Source: Tillus elongatus
Lineage: Eukaryota; Arthropoda; Insecta; Coleoptera; Cleridae
Assembly: GCA_964006375.1 (NCBI GenBank)
Contig: OZ023267.1
Span: 14,418,846 to 14,482,845, forward strand
Direction: 5' to 3'
DNA length: 64,000 bases
The position numbers were made by a program, and so were the translations under genes. Below the pieces are notes generated by a model that worked only from the letters and a program-made list of their open reading frames with translations, searched no databases and had not been told where the DNA came from. Below are positions 2,990 through 51,560 of this stretch, piece by piece. Positions within the stretch are counted from its first letter, which is position 1. The number at the start of each line of letters is the position of its first letter.

Positions 2990-3062
2990 ACCACAACACA
3001 TTTTAAAAGACCTGGCCATCGCTTCACTAACCAAGTTAGCGTCATCAGATGATGAAACATTA
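2990..3062 (-). ncRNA. degenerate hammerhead-like motif of a Penelope terminal repeat
   Basis: On the minus strand there is CUGAUGA, a hairpin CUAAC-UUG-GUUAG, then UGAAGCG where an active hammerhead needs GAAA. The position, downstream of a same-strand GIY-YIG relic (3336-3760), fits the terminal repeat of Penelope-like elements, which often carry hammerhead ribozymes. The broken GAAA box argues against activity. Confidence 0.35.
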
Positions 3063-3918: not shown

Positions 3919-4019
<101 letters not shown>

Positions 4020-31440: not shown

Positions 31441-31703
31441 TGCTTTTGTTGTAAGAAACGTTGGTACAAAAATACAATGTAAGCTAAGGTCGGCCGCGAC
31501 ATTGTGAACTGTACGACATAAACGCCATCTGGGTGTGTAACCAGATACTATGTTGTCACCGCAGCTCTGATAACCACAAAATGTTATAAATAGAGACTGT
31601 GTACAACCAACGGACGATTTTGCAAATTGTCAGCCCTGGTACTTTCTTCCCTAACGCAGAGACAATGTATGTAGGGTTGGATGCATTCTGACAATAATTA
31701 AAA

Positions 31704-31744
31704 ACGCCTACCGGTTTCGCTCTCTATCGAGCTCATCAGTGTGC
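31704..31744 (-). ncRNA. hammerhead ribozyme core, unit 2
   Basis: On the minus strand: CUGAUGA (31739-31733), then stem II GCUC-gauaga-GAGC, then GAAA, then the self-complementary stem III ACCGGU (31715-31710) and A17 as the cleavage-site base. All invariant core bases are present. Stem I is weak (only scattered pairs between CACA and GGCG), so this copy may be slow or inactive. Confidence 0.65.
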
Positions 31745-31885
31745 TATACATTCATTCCATTCGTGCTGACCTGGTAATCAATCAAATGTAGTTATGAACT
31801 TGTCTATTCCTAACTAAGTGGGATCAACGAAGGTGCTTGGTTATGTCATGCAGTCATGCAGTTATTACATGTAACAAAGGCCATA

Positions 31886-31928
31886 CCGGTTACCGGTTTC
31901 ACTGTCATTAGAGCCCATAAGTGCGGTA
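31886..31928 (-). ncRNA. decayed hammerhead core, unit 1, interrupted by MITE B
   Basis: The minus strand reads ACCGCA, CUUAUGG (for CUGAUGA), GCUCU-aaug-ACAGU and GAAACCGGUA. G5 and A9 of the core are mutated and stem II is damaged. The upstream half of the unit continues only beyond MITE B at 32341, where TACCGCACT is repeated as the target duplication. Confidence 0.55.
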
Positions 31929-32340
31929 CATGATACAAATAACGACAGATATGATATTCAGACTACCTATTTTTAGACCTGTCACGCGCATGGTGTCAAG
32001 TGGTGAGTCCAATGCAACAATAATATGCTGTCGTGCAGTGGGGTTTGACGTTTCATCACAACCTCTTAACGAATTACGTATTTTACTAATATTTAAGTGC
32101 ATACAGTTGGAAGTAAGAAAAATGAAAAAGATTTAATTTAGTGCTGCAATCTATATTATCTGAAAGAGACAATATAGGCGTAACTTTAACCGCATTAAAC
32201 TGACGTATTGAAACTTTTTGATTGCGAATGACTTTGTTTTAAGTGTGTAGTCGGACTTCTATAACGTTACTCACCACGTGACGTCATAGGAGGGGGCGGG
32301 GCATATGCGCAATATATCTCTTCTAAGTCATTATATCATG
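31929..32340. mobile_element. MITE B, copy 1, 9-bp target duplication
   Basis: A 412-bp element with ends CATGATAC...ATATCATG. It is flanked by AGTGCGGTA at 31920-31928 and 32341-32349, a perfect 9-bp duplication. It is near-identical, in inverse orientation, to 35739-36153. A 9-bp duplication is typical of Mutator-like elements. No coding sequence of its own. Confidence 0.8.
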
Positions 32341-32480
32341 AGTGCGGTATACGTTTACTTTTCGTGCTGACCTTGTAACCAATCAAATGTAGTTATGAAG
32401 TAGCATATTGTGAACTATGTGCTATCGGCGAATTTACTTGGCTTTAAGCAAGTCTTGCAAATAAGTATAGACAACCATCT

Positions 32481-33329
32481 ATACGGAATTTACAAAAAAA
32501 TTGGTTGAATAGTGGTAATGCCAGTTGTTGTGTATTCTGTTCCATAATAAACCAAGCTACTATGAACTAATGTTAAACTGACAATGAGAAGAAAACGGAA
32601 AATCTCATGTTGGGTACACTCAAGGCTTATAGATTAGATAGGTTGTCTCGTAACTCTCGACCAATCAGGTCAGGTCAGTGGAGCGGGAATACGTGACATG
32701 AATTCCGAATTTAAATCTAGGGAAATAATAGTGCATTCAGTATTGAAATAAGACGTCATTTTTATGTTCGTCTCTCAAAGTTATGTTCTTTTTTAACTTA
32801 AAATAAGAATAACTATTTTTATCATAAGATTTTTTTCACATAGTAACAGAAAGTATTAAAATTTTAGGATATTAGTCGATTTTAAATTAACGGATTCAAT
32901 TGATTGGTTTACCTTGAAAATGATTAAAATAATTATTATTATTTCTGAAATTATAAAATCATGATGCCTCAAATTGAACAGAACGTTTTTTTCTAAACCC
33001 CAACCTAGGTTTTTAGTTTTTTTAACAGTTTACGTATTTTACTGGATATTGCTCACCTATGAACATGCAACTAATCACAATTATTAAATTATTTAAATTT
33101 ATAATACTTAGGTAGGTATTTATTTTTACACATACAAAATAGTAGGCTTATAATTTTTACAATCAATTTCTAAGCAAAAAACTCAGAGGTCTTATATTTA
33201 ATTTTAAAATAACAGTAAATTGTGCTAGCCCAATAAGTGAATTATAAATATGTAATAATACTTGGTGACCTTTCAGATGAGCTCACGGAGGCCTTTTAGA
33301 GAAAATTTTTCAGAAAGGTGCTAAGAACC
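32481..33329. other. no feature seen
   Basis: Very AT-rich. No ORF, inverted repeat or family match recognised. Confidence 0.3.
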
Positions 33330-34270
33330 TACCTTGGATACATAAGACACAAGAAAAACTTCTTGCAAACAACCCCCAAAAAATTACGGGACCAGGAGTG
33401 TTGCTGGGGAAGAAGAAAGGAAAAACTCTGGACGCAGCAAATGCATTATGGTAGTGAATTTTCATTAAAATGTTTTTAATAGCAAATATGTGTTTTTTTT
33501 TAAAGAAAGCAGGCATCAAATTTGGTTACCAGTATAACCTATATAGTAAAAACAATGTGTCATGTTTCATCAAAATAACTTTATTCTTTGAAAATGTACA
33601 AAAATGTCCGAAAATAAACTTAAAAGTATTCTCGAAAAAACTAGTTTCTTGGTCAACCTTATAGGTTAATAGCAAATTGAGCAATTCAAATATGAAGCAT
33701 TTGATCAAAATTCTCTACCACAACGCACTTGCTACGTTCAGAATTTATTTTCTTACAAACATGAATTATATTTCGATGGAAAATGCAATAAGGCGTGTTT
33801 GATTAAAAAAAAAGATAATTTGTATCACCAACGACTTATGGGCCAGCCTGTGATTGTAGAAATATTATTTTAAGATGTAGCTCAAGACACCCTATAATTA
33901 ATATATACAATTTTTTTTTCATATTTTGTATAATAACGGATATATTGGGCTGTATTGATTTTTTACGAAAATTCGACAAAAATTATATACCATTAAATGA
34001 TAAACTCTATAGCTAAGACTACCGCCAAGCATCAGATAAATTGTCTTCTTTCTTTAAAGGCCTATAACTGGTAGCCATACATACTACTTTATGCTATTTG
34101 GAGCTGGCGTGACAACATACTACTTGGTTCCGCAACTAAGTGGCGACACGTTCACCACTCACTTAGAGCCCTGTATCCTTTAAACCCTGTCTACCTCGCA
34201 TTCGCCGCAGGTCCGTAGCTTTTTTGGGAGTTGATATTTCATGTCGTTTATGTATTGTGGGTGGTTGCAG
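33330..34270. mobile_element. fold-back MITE (6.2-kb type) interrupted by repeat A
   Basis: The left arm at 33335-33405 (cacaagaaaaacttcttg, ttacgggaccaggagtg) and its worn inverse at 34165-34270 are the ends of the same fold-back family as 6215-6925. Between them lie a repeat A copy (33415-34035) and a 90-bp piece (34060-34150: gagctggcgtgacaacatac) of the hammerhead-element body. Confidence 0.55.
33415..34035 (+). repeat. dispersed repeat A, short copy
   Basis: It starts tctggacgcagcaaatgcat, the TIR of repeat A, with the inverted partner near 33740, then follows 12530-13150 to about 34035. The right part leading to (TA)n is missing. Confidence 0.7.
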
Positions 34271-35039
34271 CCGTGCAGGATGGGAAAAAAATCCCACTAG
34301 GAAGTAGTATTCCTTGTGTACTGTTCTTAATAATAATTTACCAGTACTTAAACGTCTACATACAATCCAAAACACCGAATAATAATAATAACATAACTTT
34401 TGTTTATCGTTACAGTTGACAGTTGACATAAACAGCAACAGATCGTTCGCCAGAACCAAAGAAAGAGGTTGTAACATTTACGAATGTCAAGATTTTGTAA
34501 CAATTTTTGACATAACCATACATCTGCTGGCAGCCCTGGCGGCCAATAAATATCAGATTCAGAATCCGTAGAGTAATTTCTCTATGTATATGTCATATAG
34601 GACGCATTCAGCGGGCACAACAGTTAAGTATGTTAAATTGTTTAGTCAGCTGAACGCTGAAAGTTGACTTGCGGTGACTCTCAACTGTTAGAACTTTTAG
34701 GCACCAAAATTATTTACGTGCACTGATATAAACGTTGGAATATAAACCAACAGGAACGAACATTATAAAGCATAGTTGGGACCTAAAAGGAGTTTGCAAC
34801 TGTCATAATATGACGTATTAGTTTTTAAAAATGAAATTGCGAAAATAATTACCTCTTTTACAAGACAAATCACAATAATAGCACTATTTCACACTAATTT
34901 CTCAACAAACACAAATGTAAGATATTGACGAACCGGCCCAAAACTGAACCATCAAATAAAACGATCAAGATGGCTGACATGTTACACGTCCTTCTATATA
35001 TAGTACAGGTGTGAAAATGCTCCCTCATGTTGTTTTATA
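34271..35039. other. no gene seen
   Basis: Mostly AT-rich. catctgctggcagccctggc near 34520 resembles the small GGCGCCAGC element at 37020-37290. Confidence 0.3.
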
Positions 35040-35385
35040 TAAGGACATCGCGACCCTGTCGTACACCTCACAATGTTCTAGGAGGCTGGCTACCATAGCT
35101 GTATTATATTATAGGTGTGTTCTCGCTGTAATTAGGATAATAGTGCACTGACGAGCTCTAATTAGAGCGAAACCGGTCTGCGGTTATAATTGTGGTAAGA
35201 ATACATCTAGCCTCCCAGTATTGGGGAAGAAATGGGCTAGGGCTGACAATTTACACGAATTGTTAGTTGGTTGTACACAGTCTCTATTTATAACATTTTG
35301 TGTTAATTTGGAGCTGTCGTGACAACATACTACCTGGTTCTGCACCGAGATGGCGACTCTGTCGTAATCTCGCAATGTTTTGTTG
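35040..35385 (+). repeat. hammerhead-bearing repeat, single unit
   Basis: It contains an intact hammerhead core at 35143-35183. A body follows with agggctgacaattt, ttggttgtacacagtctc and gtgacaacatactacctgg, the same order as after the core at 31704-31744 on the minus strand. The string gcgac.ctgtcgta..ctc.caatgtt occurs before the core (35048) and again after the body (35352), so a period of about 304 bp is visible, as in a tandem dimer. Confidence 0.65.
35143..35183 (+). ncRNA. type-I hammerhead ribozyme, apparently intact core
   Basis: Stem I 5' strand UGCA (35144-35147). CUGACGA (35148-35154). Perfect 5-bp stem II GCUCU-AAUU-AGAGC (35155-35168). GAAA (35169-35172). Self-complementary stem III ACCGGU (35172-35177), C17 (35178) as cleavage-site base, then UGCG (35179-35182), which pairs with UGCA (three Watson-Crick pairs plus one G-U). 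This meets the hammerhead consensus at every invariant core position. The very short stem III suggests cleavage in a dimeric form, as in Penelope and retrozyme hammerheads. Confidence 0.75.
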
Positions 35386-35659
35386 TTTTATATTCTAAGA
35401 AATAAACAGTAAATTCTAACCTTAAACCTTACTTTTTGTACAAATGTCAGTTTATCTGACGGCGATTGACTGTCATGACAGAATTTCATTGCATTTGATA
35501 TTTGAATAGCCTACTACATATAATTTAGACACATTTTGCTTTACCATAATAGAAACACGTTTGCGTTGTAAGTCAACAGTTGACGCTCCCATAGTCATAC
35601 TATTCATATAAATAATAATGCCATATCAAATATGCATTTGATATGGCATTATGTATGCA

Positions 35660-36200
35660 TAGTGGCCGAGTTTACCTGCGCCAGCAGCTGTATCAACAAT
35701 TTTTGACAACAATTTAACTGTTGGCAGCTACTGACACCCATGATATAATGACTTAGAAGAGATATGATATTGCGCATATGCCCCGCCCCCTCCTATGACG
35801 TCACGTGGTGAGTAACGTTATAGAAGTCCAACTACACACTTAAAACAAAGTCATTCGCAATCAAAAAGTTTCTATACGTCAGTTTATTGCGGTTGAAGTT
35901 ACGCTTATATTGTCTTTTTCAAATAATATAGATCGCAGCACTAAATTTGATCTTTTTCATTTTTATTACGTCCAACAGTATGCACTTAAATATTAGTAAA
36001 ATACGTAATTTGTTAATAGGATGTGATGAAACGTCAAACCTCACTGCACGACAGCATATTATTGTTGCATTGGACTCACCACTTGACACCATGCGCGTGA
36101 CAGGTCTAAAAATAGGTAGTCGGAATATCATATCTCTCGTTATTTGTATCATGACTGACACCTGTTGGCGCCTGGTAAGTTGGCCAATAATAAGCCTTTA
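35660..36200. mobile_element. small GGCGCCAGC-type MITE, interrupted by MITE B
   Basis: gagtttacctgcgccagcag at 35667 and the inverse-type end tgttggcgcctggtaagttg at 36163 bracket a unit of about 110 bp once MITE B is removed. The related sequence at 37020-37290 supports the family. Confidence 0.4.
35739..36153. mobile_element. MITE B, copy 2, 9-bp target duplication
   Basis: 415 bp from CATGATATAATGAC to TATTTGTATCATG. It is flanked by ACTGACACC at 35730-35738 and 36154-36162. It is inverted relative to copy 1 (31929-32340) and aligned with it end to end. Confidence 0.85.
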
Positions 36201-40823: not shown

Positions 40824-41140
40824 GCAGTAAGTGCGTTATGGTAACGTATGGTATAATAATGTGTGTTTTAAGTGTTTTACCGTAATGAACACGAATATAA
40901 TAAATCCATGTCTGTTATGGTAGGGAGTATGATATAATTATGCAAGTAAAATGGAAAAAATTTAAAATATACCTATATTGACGCAGCAAGTGTTTTACGG
41001 TAATGAATACGAATATAATAAATACATGTGCATTATGGTAGGGGGTATGATATAAGTATGCAAGTAAAACAGAAACAATTTAAAATATACCTATATTGAT
41101 GCAGCAAGTGTGTTACGGTAATGAATATGAATAGAATAAA
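40824..41140. repeat. 118-bp satellite-like array, left part
   Basis: Units start gcagcaagtg at 40983 and 41101 (period 118) with a diverged first unit at 40824. Each contains ttacggtaatgaata, tgcgttatggtaggga and atgcaagtaaaatgg. The array resumes at 43385 after a LINE insertion. The start motif gacgcagcaagtg...ttatggta is the TIR of repeat A. Confidence 0.8.
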
Positions 41141-41147
41141 CGCTTCT

Positions 41148-43384
41148 ACACAATCCCAGTCAAGAAAACCGTCAAGCATTTAACGACGCAAGAAATCACT
41201 ATGTCCGCATTCTTTCTGAGGCAAAAAACTCGTTTAATAACCACATCAAAAACAAAGTCCTCTTAAGCTCAAACGGCAGCAATCCCTTCTGGACTCTTGC
41301 TAAATCTATTGGGAATAATTTCTGCAAGAGCATGTTCCCACCTCTTGTCTCAAGGGACGAAATTGTTTCTACCGCCCTGGGCAAGGCTGAACTTTTTGCT
41401 TCGTTATTCGCCGCCAATTCTACTCTCAACCCATCTCCAAATGTTCAACCACCAACAGTCCCCAATGTCGCACATAAAATGACGGATATCATTTTCAAAA
41501 CTCGAAAGGTATGAAAGATGCTCTCTTCTCTTAATACCAGGAAAGCCTCTGGCCTTGACGAGATCCCAGCAATTGTTCTCAAAAAATGCGCACCAAAACT
41601 TGCTCCTGTCCTGACTCGTCTGTTTCAGACATCTTACAATAGAGGCATATTCCCTAGTAGCTGGAAAACTGTTCGAGTACAACCCGTCCACAAGAAAGGA
41701 TCGAAAGCGCTTCCTAGCAACTACAGGCCTATTTTTCTCCTTTCAGTCATCTCTAAAGTGATGGAAAAGTATATAAACACCGAATTACTAAAATTTCTTG
41801 AAAAACAGTCTAATCCACGACAGGCAGTATGGATTCCGTCAGCGCAGATCAACTGCCGACCTCCTTTCCTTTGTCACCCATTCTTGGAACAACTCTATGG
41901 AACTACACGGTGAATCCCAGATTGTTGCTCTGGACATATCCAAAGCATTCGACCAGGTCTGGCACGCAGCGCTGCTTAATAAACTACCAGCCTATGGCCT
42001 ACCACCAAAACTGTACGTGGACAGCAAATTTCCTCTCCAACCGAAGCATTTCTGTTGTCGTGGATGGCCATTCCTCTAAACTGTATCCAATTAATGCAGG
42101 AGTTCCTCAAGGTTCAGCTTTAGCCCCTACTTTGTTTCTTCTCCACATCAATGACCTCCTCTCTAGCACATCCAATCCAGTTCACAGTTACGCGGACGAT
42201 AGCACCCTCCACTCAAATATACAATATTCTAAGCCTGTCTCTTTAGCCCAATTAGATGAGGATCGCAGACTCATGGAGGGTTCTATCTCCGTGGATCTCC
42301 AAAAAATATTAGACTGGGGAAGTAGAAATCTTGTACAATTCAACCCCACCAAATCACAGTCTTGCTTTCTTTCTCATAAGAGATACACCAGCCCTACACC
42401 CATCACATTAAACAACTTTGTTTCTTCTCCACATCAATGGCCTCCTCTCTAGCACATCCAATCCAGTTCACAGTTACGCGGACGATTACACCCTCCACTC
42501 AAATATACAATATTCTAAGCCTGTCTCTTAGCCCAATTAGATGAGGATCGCAGACTCATGGAGGGTTCTATCTCCGTGGATCTCCAAAAAATATTAGACT
42601 GGGGAAGTAGAAATCTTGTACAATTCAACCCCACCAAATCACAGTCTTGCTTTCTTTCTCATAAGAGATACACCAGCCCTAGACCCATCACAATGAACAA
42701 CCAAGTTATCCAAAGTAATGAGTCCTTTTCACTTGTTGGCATTTCTGTGGATCGAAGTCTCAATTGGCACCAATATGTCACTTCAATTGCAGAAGCGGCT
42801 GCCAAGAAATTAGGCTTCCTCTTCCGGGCTCGCAAATACTTTTCACCAGCTAATCTATATACTTTATATACTTCACAAATAAGACCAAACCTCGAATACT
42901 GCTCCACATCTGGGGTGCTGCTGCCGCTTCTACACTCGCTATCCTGAACTCCATTCAGAAGAGAGCTATATGTCTTATCGGTGACCCTACCCTTACCCAA
43001 AGGCTGCCATCCCTTGCCCACCGACGTGCCGTTGGTGACCTCTCTCTCTTTTATAGATATCTGCACGGGCACTGCTCAGAGGAGCTTTCTTCCATAGTTC
43101 CTCCACCTGCTGCCCCCAGCAGATCTACCAGGGGAACAGAGCGAATGGACCCTTTTACTGTCCAGGTCACCAGACATAGAACATCTTGTTATGCCCGCTT
43201 TTTTGTCCCGAGGACTTCCAAGTTGTGGAATTCTTTGCCGGCACATTTTTTCCTTCTCCTCCGAACCTCCAAACCTTCAAGTCCAGAATTAACAAGTTGC
43301 CTCTTTCCTCCTTGTCGACACCCATGGTACGATAGTATTTGGGCTGTAAGCCCTCGTGGTGTGTTGTCGGAATAATTTTTAAAA
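41148..43384 (+). pseudogene. LINE family beta, copy b, inserted in the satellite array
   Basis: It begins with the pre-RT region (FNDARNHYVRILSEAKNSFN) and continues with SGLDEIPAIVLKKCAPKLAP, SNYRPIFLLSVISKVMEK, VALDISKAFDQVWH, AGVPQGSALAPTLFLLHIND and HSYADD. C-terminal ARKYFSPANLYTLYTSQIRP and TSKLWNSLPAHF follow, with several frameshifts between. A 286-bp block (42131-42416) is repeated in tandem at 42417-42700, duplicating the YADD region. The 3' end (ctgtaagccctcgtgg, gtcggaataa, A-run) is complete at 43384, right against satellite DNA. It cannot encode a working protein. Confidence 0.85.
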
Positions 43385-43650
43385 AAATGTGCGTTATGGT
43401 AGGAAGTATGATATAATTATGCAAGTAAAATTGAAAAAAATTAAAATAGACCTATATTGATGCAGCAAGTTTTTACGGTAATGAATATGAATATAATAAA
43501 TACATGTGCGTTATGGTAGGGAGTATGATATAGGTATGCAAGTAAAATGGAAAAAATTTAAAATATACCTATATTGAGGCAGCAAGTGTTTTACGGTAAT
43601 GAATACGAATATAATAAATACATGTGCGTTATGGTAGAGAGTATGATACA
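43385..43650. repeat. 118-bp satellite-like array, right part
   Basis: About 2.2 units (gcagcaag at 43462 and 43579, period 117) with the same internal words as the left part. The break in the unit (after aataaa, before tgtgcgttatgg) marks the LINE insertion point. Confidence 0.8.
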
Positions 43651-46154: not shown

Positions 46155-47715
46155 TTTTTTCCTTCCTTGGAGCTCGCCCGCGTCTTTGCCGCCCCGATAG
46201 CACCGCAGCCTTTGTCTTATTGTGATGCCCTTTGTCTTTTCTACTCCACCCATTCCAAAATCACTGTGCCTTGAACTAGTCTGCACAGCAATGGGTAGGG
46301 TGAAGTTTTATATTGCTCTGTCTCCGGGCTAGACTGACCGTAGATCAGTTGTTTTTTGTGGTCCAGAGCTTTACACTCGCACAAGATGTGCTGCGCTCAT
46401 TCCTCCCCCTCGCCACAGAGTCTGCATGCCAGTTCCCCCTCGAACCGCCCTATTTTATGCAGGTGTTCCTTGACAGCCATGCGTCCTGTTATGTTCCTGA
46501 GCTGTCCTCTGATAAGATTTGTCAGCTCCACAGCTCTGTTTGGACTGGGTTGCCCAATTAAAGACTTGCCGTGTTTGAGCCCTGGACAATCTGCCCAGTA
46601 TGCATTATGCCGTTCCCTGTCCCAGGACTTCATAGTTCCCCTGGCCGTACCTTTCAACACGTCCAGGACCGGTTCTGGGCCCATAAATGGTTCTGCTGAT
46701 CCTCTTTTCGCGAGACTGTCAGCTTCTTCATTGTCTTTAACCCCCGAGTGACCCGGCACCCAGATGAGGGTGATCTCATACTGCCCAGCCAGGTCACTCG
46801 TCTCGTCTCAGCATTCACTTACTAGCCTGGAATTTACACGTGGACTACTTAGGGCCTTAAGGGCTGTCTATGGATTTGAGGATCCACTTGTTGGTGTAGC
46901 CCCTTCTCTTGTTCTCACACATACACTGCAAGATGGCGTACATTTCGGCCTGAAAGACCGTTGCATGAGCTCCTAGGGAAATTCTGTGATTTTCCCATCA
47001 GTCCTTCTGAATAAACGCCTGCCAGACGAGCACGTCCCGTGGTAGGCACGGCGTTTCCCCTCGCCATGTATCGCGGTCGGGTATTACCACTGTAAACTTG
47101 TCATCCCTGCAGATTTGCGGGCTTTCGAAGTCTCAGCTCATTTCATGCATGGACTTCTTCACGATCTCCTAAATTTTGCAGTGGCCCCTGCAGCGTGGGT
47201 TGGTCAGACCAGTGCCGCATATGTTAACGATGGTCTGACCACCCTTGTGTACAGTCAGTGGGCCATACTAGGTCTTAGCCCCCATGTTTTTCTATAAAGA
47301 CGCCTAGTGAGGGCTAAGGTCATGACTGCCTTACGCAGTATTTTTTCAACGTGACCATTCCAGGTTAGCTTAGAGTCCAATACGACCCTAAGATATTTTA
47401 CCTCCCTGACCATTGGGATGTTTCTACCGTATATAGAATGAGAGTTCTGTGGCTCTCCCACTGCCTCCTCGTAAACAGTATGACGGTTGCTTTCTCGGGG
47501 TTCAACCCGAGCCCTTGGCCAACCGTCCACCCTTCCACCACTTTCAGTGCTGTCTGCATGCGCTCCCACACTGACTTGGTAACCTTTCCTCGAAGATGAC
47601 AATGTCGTCCGCATAGCCCTGTACTTCGTCCCCCCTCCCAAGAGCCTCCCTAGCAGGCCGTCCATGACTAGGCACCAGAGCAGGGGAGACAGAAAGCTCC
47701 CCTGCAGACACCCAC
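46155..47715 (-). pseudogene. LINE family alpha, minus copy (left palindrome arm and beyond)
   Basis: On the minus strand: LQGSFLSPLLWCLVMDGLL (RT motif QG..LSPLLW), a frameshift, then GYADDIVIFEE in the next frame. Further frameshifts lead to LGLNPEKATVILFTRRQWES, EVKYLRVVLDSKLTWNGHVE and RLYRKTWGLRP. A deleted linker, a partial RNase H ([19 protein letters not shown]) and the zinc knuckle ending ACRLCGEGEE... follow, with the 3' tail ending in an A-run near 46160. It is the parent of the right arm copy at 49265-50315. Confidence 0.8.
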
Positions 47716-47808
47716 TTAATTTTGATTTAACATTAATTATTTTTATAAATTACAGAAAATTGTGCAATTAATGAATACAAAATAAACGAATTGAAAACCA
47801 AAAAGTGT

Positions 47809-48339: not shown

Positions 48340-48644
<305 letters not shown>

Positions 48645-49174: not shown

Positions 49175-49264
49175 ACACTTTTTGGTTTTCAATTCGTTTA
49201 TTTTGTATTCATTAATTGCACAATTTTCTGTAATTTATAAAAATAATTAATGTTAAATCAAAAT

Positions 49265-51560
<2,296 letters not shown>

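What the first reader, a model, noticed from the sequence alone, without database searches (positions are those of the whole stretch)
31500..32480. Tandem repeat with hammerhead ribozymes, resembling an animal retrozyme
On the minus strand two units, 182 bp apart once MITE B is removed, each carry ttcataactacatttgatt, gtcagcacgaa, a CA-ending stem strand and a hammerhead core, with a third partial unit upstream. Short tandem, non-coding, ribozyme-bearing units are the hallmark of retrozymes, known from plants and animals, which spread as circular RNAs. Here the family is interrupted, so its history can be read. It might instead be the terminal repeat of a Penelope element.
Basis: partly seen in the sequence, partly recalled or inferred. 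Interest (0 to 1): 0.85.

Follow-up and report, generated by a model that had tools for sequence, protein, structure and literature searches.

The report
Decayed ribozyme-bearing retroelement (retrozyme-like)
An animal genome carries two old copies of a tiny non-coding mobile element whose RNA would have cut itself with a hammerhead ribozyme; it looks like a new, decayed relative of the known animal "retrozymes" rather than a new kind of system.

Summary
The hammerhead motifs are real. On the minus strand (locus 1) two non-coding units of about 180 bp (type A) each end in a type I hammerhead; the predicted cuts are 182 bp apart. The first core is mutated, and a MITE with a 9-bp target duplication sits in its helix I. 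The second core is intact but its helix I is mismatched. Downstream comes a different unit (type B). No further A unit was found upstream.

A second locus, not in the finding (plus strand, 35041-35380), holds a B element with an intact core and better helix I. It lies between exact 13-bp direct repeats, and its ends repeat about 34 bp, implying a unit of about 303 bp. Slightly more than one lap around a circular RNA, inserted with a target duplication, would leave this.

All three ribozymes have a loopless palindromic helix III (ACCGGU), closer to Penelope-type minimal hammerheads. A GIY-YIG ORF, probably Penelope-like, lies 28 kb away; the sequence after it does not resemble A or B.

Best reading: a decayed, non-autonomous retrozyme-like family. 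Copy number, self-cleavage and circular RNA could not be tested; the genome search did not complete in 11 of 11 tries.

The parts
31891..32490 (-). Locus 1, first A unit (about 179 bp without the MITE and one target duplication); its start is fuzzy, 32474-32494 among the best-scoring choices, near the point that matches the predicted hammerhead cut
   Evidence: Alignment to the second A unit, z 12.9 against shuffles; start-point ties; no further A unit found upstream
31929..32340 (-). MITE (412 bp) inserted in helix I of the first hammerhead, between 9-bp duplications TACCGCACT at 32349-32341 and 31928-31920
   Evidence: Second copy at 35739-36153 (94.5%) with its own 9-bp duplication
31880..31928 (-). 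Hammerhead of the first A unit; core mutated (CTTATGG in place of CTGATGA), GAAACCGGTA kept; predicted cut after 31891
31709..31890 (-). Locus 1, second A unit, 182 bp from cut to cut
31760..31798 (-). Conserved A block, 37 of 39 identical to 32399-32361 against 70% of columns overall (P about 0.0006 by column shuffling; block length chosen after seeing it)
31698..31751 (-). Hammerhead at the A/B junction, intact core CTGATGA / GAAA / UA, helix II 4 bp, helix I with mismatches; predicted cut after 31709
   Evidence: Rfam HH9 18.4 bits, E 0.33 in 2.2 kb, below its cut-off of 52
31499..31708 (-). Locus 1, B unit (partial); hammerhead plus B 74.6% identical to locus 2 over 252 columns
31575..31611 (-). 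Conserved B block, 37 of 37 identical to 35266-35302 against 74% of columns overall (P about 0.0002 by column shuffling; block length chosen after seeing it)
35041..35380 (+). Locus 2: bounded B element, 340 bp, about 303-bp unit plus about 34 bp of terminal redundancy (35045-35078 and 35348-35380)
   Evidence: 13-bp direct repeats at both edges; redundancy 28 of 34 columns, 46 of 3830 random zone pairs score as well
35028..35040 (+). Left copy of the 13-bp target-site duplication TGTTGTTTTATAT
35381..35393 (+). Right copy of the 13-bp target-site duplication
35136..35190 (+). Hammerhead of locus 2: CTGACGA, helix II GCTC/GAGC, GAAACCGGTC, inner helix I 4 pairs (TGCA/TGCG, one of them G-U); predicted cut after 35178
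   Evidence: Rfam Hammerhead_1 23.6 bits, E 0.0029 in 601 bp, below its cut-off of 34
34081..34147 (+). Short third B fragment
   Evidence: 86.5% over 52 nt to locus 2; 0 of 500 shuffles as good against locus 2, 4 of 500 against locus 1
3010..3048 (-). Hammerhead-like motif 288 nt after the stop of a GIY-YIG ORF (3674-3336) that I take for Penelope-type; an extra C and GAAG make it non-canonical
   Evidence: Random expectation 0.023 per window for a descriptor fitted after seeing it; GIY-YIG PF01541 E 5.5e-6; no homologue found

Best explanation
These are decayed copies of a non-autonomous, non-coding retroelement of the animal retrozyme kind. It comes in two unit types, A (about 182 nt) and B (about 303 nt), that share one type I hammerhead ribozyme. 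Transcripts carrying two or more units would be cut at each hammerhead, probably by pairs of hammerheads joined through the palindromic helix III ACCGGU. The unit-length RNAs with 5'-OH and cyclic-phosphate ends would be circularised by a host ligase, copied by a reverse transcriptase supplied by another element (a Penelope-like element is a good candidate) and inserted with a target-site duplication. Locus 2 is the product of just over one lap of a B template. Locus 1 is a chimeric A-A-B product whose switch from A to B lies in the shared ribozyme. Shown from sequence: the motifs, the A units, the A/B switch, the 13-bp duplication, the terminal redundancy, the MITE insertion, the lack of a shared reading frame in B. 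Inferred: cleavage, dimeric action, circularisation, the source of the reverse transcriptase, past mobility.
For: Three homologous hammerheads at two loci, 2 of 3 with a fully intact core; GAAACCGGT identical in 3 of 3. Rfam type I model hit at locus 2, below its cut-off. Two A units with predicted cuts 182 bp apart. B shared by two loci on opposite strands (z 27.8). Locus 2 flanked by an exact 13-bp repeat; 12 of 5000 random zone pairs have 12 or more and 8 of 5000 have 13 or more, simple repeats included. Its right edge (35381) lies 3 nt past the end of homology to locus 1 (35378), seen before the repeat was looked for. Terminal redundancy of locus 2. Blocks conserved above background. Stops in 3 of 3 forward frames of both B copies, frame-breaking indels between them, and no Pfam match for the one longer open stretch across the end of locus 1 B (31629-31354, 92 aa). 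GC 0.418 (A), 0.426 and 0.409 (B of locus 2 and locus 1). A B-length segment of locus 2 is predicted to be strongly self-paired as a circle (z -4.4 and -4.1; other strand -2.4).
Against: No whole-genome copy number: 11 of 11 genome-search runs did not complete. Locus 2 has one hammerhead, so nothing proves a B tandem beyond the 34-bp redundancy, which 46 of 3830 random pairs match. The locus 1 B tail does not match the pre-hammerhead part of B significantly (413 of 3923), and matches sequence beyond the right 13-bp repeat of locus 2 slightly better (37 of 3923 in a short zone; 101 of 1964, 222 of 1944 and 402 of 1931 in longer zones), which would argue against the right boundary if real. Self-pairing is not rare here: 3 of 60 random segments are as extreme, and A (z -1.2) and locus 1 B (z +0.4) are not unusual. 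Helix I at 31739 is mismatched. No hammerhead reaches an Rfam cut-off. Helix III is not that described for canonical invertebrate retrozymes.
Confidence: 0.6

Rival explanations
1. A and B are remnants of the pseudo-LTRs and 5' parts of an autonomous Penelope-like element; locus 2 is a solo pseudo-LTR and locus 1 a tandem of pseudo-LTRs with a stretch of element body.
For: Helix III has no loop and is palindromic, near the minimal type reported in Penelope-like elements (PMC7761336, passages). Pseudo-LTRs of 193-218 bp, partial tandems, solo pseudo-LTRs and 8-10 bp target duplications are reported for rotifer Penelope elements (PMC3846280, passages). A GIY-YIG ORF with a hammerhead-like motif 288 nt after its stop lies at 3674-3010.
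Against: No Penelope coding sequence seen next to either locus. B has frame-breaking indels and stops in all 3 forward frames of both copies, so it does not look like an ORF start. The 540 bp after the GIY-YIG ORF resembles neither A nor B beyond shuffles. A solo pseudo-LTR does not predict that both ends of locus 2 repeat the same 34 bp (inference).
Confidence: 0.27
2. The units are satellite DNA that carries a hammerhead, spread by unequal crossing-over and not by RNA.
For: Hammerheads in tandem repetitive DNA are classical (newt, schistosome, cave cricket; PMC6155905, passages).
Against: The arrays are very short and chimeric, and locus 2 is a single bounded copy between direct repeats.
Confidence: 0.08
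3. The hammerheads are chance or non-functional matches in ordinary repeats.
For: One of 3 cores is broken, no Rfam cut-off is reached, helix I is poor at 31739.
Against: Random sequence gives 0 in 300 windows for the descriptor with GAAACCGGT; two homologous loci keep core and helix II while the whole alignment is 74.6% identical.
Confidence: 0.05

Closest known systems
Metazoan non-LTR retrozymes (Cervera and de la Pena 2020, PMC7229834)
   Same: Non-coding units of 182 and about 303 bp within the reported 170-400 nt, type I hammerhead, GC below 50%, partial tandem, target duplication longer than 4 bp, no LTR or ORF seen; a probable Penelope-like element in the same window
   Different: Helix III is a loopless palindrome instead of a stable stem and loop; two unit types joined in one array; only two loci and one fragment seen, decayed; circular RNA not shown
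Minimal hammerheads of Penelope-like elements (PMC7761336 passages, PMC11167929 main text; the primary papers PMC4209133 and PMC5785218 are not held)
   Same: Very short palindromic helix III suited to paired (double) hammerheads, tandem arrangement
   Different: No adjoining reverse transcriptase / GIY-YIG frame seen; the unit is a few hundred bp; no similarity to the region after the GIY-YIG ORF of this window
Newt/axolotl hammerhead repeats (PMC7229834 results; PMC6155905 passages)
   Same: Weak helix III with palindromic closure, type I, tandem units, reported to act as dimers
   Different: Amphibian units are about 330-350 bp with a palindromic tetraloop; here there is no tetraloop and units are 182 and about 303 bp

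Membership tests
Type I hammerhead ribozyme | Conserved core C3-U4-G5-A6-N7-G8-A9, G12-A13-A14, A15.1-U16.1, H17 (positions recalled) | tested here: met
   2 of 3 motifs fully (31739, 35148); the third (31921) has G5 and A9 changed
Type I hammerhead ribozyme | Helix I open-ended, helix II closed by a loop | tested here: met
   Met in full only by the locus 2 motif. Helix II GCTC/GAGC in 2 of 3; inner helix I pairs (4, one G-U) at locus 2, mismatched in the other two
Type I hammerhead ribozyme | Score at the Rfam curated cut-off | tested here: not met
   Best 23.6 bits against 34; 0 matches in the window at the gathering cut-off
Metazoan retrozyme | Short (about 170-400 nt) non-coding unit with a type I hammerhead, GC below 50% | tested here: met
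   A 182 bp, GC 0.418; B about 303 bp, GC 0.426
Metazoan retrozyme | Tandem units, dimers or more | tested here: inconclusive
   Locus 1: two A units then B; locus 2: about 1.1 B units
Metazoan retrozyme | Target duplication longer than 4 bp when present, no LTR | tested here: met
   13 bp at locus 2; locus 1 has only an 8-bp candidate at chance level
Metazoan retrozyme | Canonical hammerhead with stable helix III (invertebrates) | tested here: not met
   Helix III is ACCGGU without a loop in 3 of 3
Metazoan retrozyme | Contacts between loops 1 and 2 | not tested
   No call addressed tertiary contacts
Metazoan retrozyme | Many dispersed genomic copies | not tested
   The genome search unanswered in 11 of 11 tries
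Metazoan retrozyme | Linear and circular unit-length RNA in vivo | not testable with these tools
   No RNA data
Penelope-like element (pseudo-LTR) | Reverse transcriptase and GIY-YIG frame between the repeats | tested here: not met
   No such frame seen next to either locus in this window; a genome-wide test was not possible
Penelope-like element (pseudo-LTR) | Minimal hammerhead lacking helix III nucleotides or loop, in tandem | tested here: inconclusive
   Helix III is loopless, but its CCGG is present

The most novel reading that the evidence does not exclude
The mixed A-A-B array records end-to-end template jumping: a reverse transcriptase ran off the ribozyme-cut 5' end of a B RNA and continued on the ribozyme-cut 3' end of A RNAs, so retrozyme tandems could arise from linear self-cleaved monomers as well as by running round a circle. 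It predicts that unlike units in retrozyme arrays always meet exactly at a hammerhead cut site. At the 31739 hammerhead two diagnostic positions up to the cut are A-like (one A and one B motif to compare with), and the sequence after the cut is B-like.
Probability: 0.12. Interest if true: 0.62.

Novelty: new member of a known kind. Interest (0 to 1): 0.4.

Why it matters
Animal retrozymes are known in general, and insects are named among their hosts (PMC7229834, results), but that paper leaves open which enzyme copies them; its circle-template route to tandems is a proposal. A bounded 1.1-unit copy with a target duplication, beside a chimeric array whose switch lies in the ribozyme, gives concrete breakpoints to test such models once the genome can be searched. 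If Penelope-type minimal ribozymes prove common in retrozyme-sized units, that would tie the two families together.

Tried and rejected
Rejected: a third A unit upstream of 32490. Similarity of the A and B conserved blocks to each other (865 of 1000 shuffles as good). Similarity of A or B to the region 3340-2800 after the GIY-YIG ORF. B as a coding start of a Penelope-like ORF. Further hammerheads in the window: the covariance model R1, built from these 3 motifs and so matching them by construction, listed 13 other hits up to E 10, none better than E 0.48, with filters off. An 8-bp candidate duplication at locus 1 (32498-32491 and 31472-31465): about 6% of random zone pairs reach 8 bp, so it is not used. 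Self-pairing as evidence: weak, 3 of 60 random segments equal it. Rfam hits to SCARNA7, CRISPR-DR46 and others are far below their cut-offs.

Searches without result: viral contigs for a B block and for a hammerhead pattern, 0 matches each; genome contigs (prokaryotes) for the hammerhead pattern, 0; protein homologues of the GIY-YIG ORF, 2 candidates, none at E 0.001 or better; solved structures, one meaningless hit at E 0.64; NCBIfam, one hit of that ORF far below its cut-off. The papers PMC4209133, PMC5785218 and PMC5850863 are not held; passages of PMC10085705 gave nothing of use.

Full report
WHAT IS THERE. The window (64000 bases, GC 0.377) looks like repeat-rich animal DNA; its source was not determined. 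It holds several RVT_1 reverse-transcriptase fragments, which I take for non-LTR elements from their look; an ORF matching a Tc-type transposase helix-turn-helix just below the Pfam cut-off; and an ORF with a methyl-CpG-binding domain. An arthropod is my guess from memory of such genes; no call tested it.

LOCUS 1 (minus strand, about 32490 to 31499). Two copies of a block (ttcataactacatttgattg ... gtcagcacgaa) start at 32399 and 31798. Two hammerhead motifs follow them. In the first (31921) the core reads CTTATGG in place of CTGATGA, so two conserved positions are lost. In the second (31739) the core is intact. Both continue into GAAACCGGTA. The nucleotides 5' of the predicted cut are 31891 and 31709, 182 bp apart. 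Its second copy in the window (35739-36153, 94.5% identical) has ACTGACACC on both sides. Discounting the MITE and one duplication, the first unit is about 179 bp and the spacing of the two blocks is 180. The start of the first unit lies near the position that matches the hammerhead cut, but equally or almost equally good alignments start anywhere from 32474 to 32494, so this coincidence is weak. Nothing like a further A unit was found upstream (707 of 1000 and 490 of 1000 shuffles as good in two tests).

THE SWITCH. After the hammerhead at 31739 the sequence is not A. It is a second unit type, B, found by comparing the region with the rest of the window. A and B share little beyond the ribozyme: their best local alignment, ribozyme included, scores 60.5 against a shuffled maximum of 67.5.

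LOCUS 2 (plus strand, 35041-35380). B and a third hammerhead occur here, 74.6% identical to locus 1 over 252 columns (z 27.8). The core is CTGACGA ... GAAACCGGTC, helix II is GCTC/GAGC, and the inner helix I forms four pairs, one of them G-U. Rfam's type I hammerhead model scores 23.6 bits (E 0.0029 in 601 bp), below its cut-off of 34. The element sits between two exact copies of TGTTGTTTTATAT (35028-35040 and 35381-35393). I saw this repeat by eye first and tested it afterwards: of 5000 random zone pairs 12 have a repeat of 12 or more and 8 have 13 or more, simple repeats included. The right copy begins 3 nt after the place where homology to locus 1 had already been seen to end (35378). The two ends of the element repeat each other (35045-35078 and 35348-35380, 28 of 34 columns); 46 of 3830 random pairs score as well. 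The unit is thus about 303 bp and the insertion about 1.1 units. A short third B fragment lies at 34081-34147.

RESULTS AGAINST. The tail of locus 1 beyond 31499 does not match the pre-hammerhead part of B significantly (413 of 3923), and matches sequence beyond the right duplication of locus 2 somewhat better (37 of 3923 in a short zone; 101 of 1964, 222 of 1944 and 402 of 1931 in longer zones). If that were real homology, the right boundary would be wrong. I think it is chance AT-rich similarity. Circular self-pairing is strong for locus 2 B (z -4.4 and -4.1; its other strand -2.4), but 3 of 60 random segments are as extreme, and A (z -1.2) and locus 1 B (z +0.4) are ordinary. None of the motifs reaches an Rfam cut-off.

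THE RIBOZYME. GAAACCGGT is identical in all three motifs. Between A15.1 and U16.1 lies only CCGG, so one molecule can hardly form a proper helix III, but two can share a 6-bp ACCGGU duplex. Reviews describe short helix III and paired (double) hammerheads for viroids, newts and Penelope-like elements, with palindromic closure and tandem arrangement as requirements (passages of PMC6466107, PMC6155905 and PMC7761336). That these motifs act as dimers is an inference; the dimer energies come from other pairings too and do not test it.

CONSERVED BLOCKS. Within A, 37 of 39 columns of the block are identical against 70% overall; within B, 37 of 37 against 74% (20000 column shuffles, P about 0.0006 and 0.0002; the block lengths were chosen after seeing them). 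They may be binding or priming sites for the borrowed reverse transcriptase; this is speculation.

RETROZYME OR PENELOPE. Published animal retrozymes are non-coding units of about 170-400 nt with type I hammerheads, GC below 50%, no LTR, and target duplications over 4 bp when present; they coexist with Penelope-like elements (PMC7229834: abstract, introduction, two of three parts of the results, and discussion read). Locus 2 fits. Penelope-like elements have minimal hammerheads in pseudo-LTRs (PMC7761336, passages and section 9); in a rotifer these are 193-218 bp long, with 8-10 bp target duplications and solo copies (PMC3846280, passages). In one lizard element the ORF begins inside the ribozyme (PMC11167929, abstract and main text). 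In this window a GIY-YIG ORF (3674-3336, PF01541) is followed 288 nt later by CTGATGA with a 6-bp helix II and GAA (random expectation 0.023 per window for a descriptor fitted to it), apparently a decayed Penelope-type ribozyme. That the ORF is Penelope-type is my recognition; the homologue search found nothing. The region after it (3340-2800) does not resemble A or B. B does not look like an ORF start: both copies carry stops in all 3 forward frames, the indels between them break frame, and the one longer open stretch, 92 aa across the end of locus 1 B, has no Pfam match. The RT beside locus 1 is 92% identical to 41182-42178 from 31301 on (1002 columns), so it belongs to another repeat family. 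I put the retrozyme reading at 0.6 and a Penelope pseudo-LTR remnant at 0.27.

HISTORY. The two A copies are 70-79% identical, depending on the stretch and on how gaps count, the two B copies 74.6%, the two MITE copies 94.5%. The ribozyme elements are therefore probably older than the MITE insertion, which broke a hammerhead whose core may already have been mutated.

LIMITS. A search of the paper library for retrozyme with template switching listed 4 papers (listing only); I read no part of them for this, so I claim nothing about priority for the template-jumping idea.

Noticed in passing
32340-31929 (-) and 35739-36153 (+): MITE family of 412-415 bp with ends CATGATATAA.../...TTGTATCATG and 9-bp target duplications; a sub-threshold SCARNA7 match inside it (23.5 bits against 65)
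   Followed up: partly
3674-3010 (-): Probable remnant of a Penelope-like element: GIY-YIG ORF followed by a hammerhead-like motif, with a TA microsatellite (3923-4016) upstream
   Followed up: partly
47255-47749 (-) and 49234-49728 (+): Inverted duplication, identical over 495 of 495 bases, on either side of a long TA microsatellite (48342-48641): a young palindrome or an assembly artefact
   Followed up: partly
35615-35652 (+): A 38-nt palindrome (89% self-complementary) between locus 2 and the second MITE copy
   Followed up: no
40870-43648 (+): A 285-bp tandem duplication (97%) at 42129-42701 inside an RT copy, with 117/118-bp tandem repeats on either side at 40870-41140 and 43380-43648
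   Followed up: no
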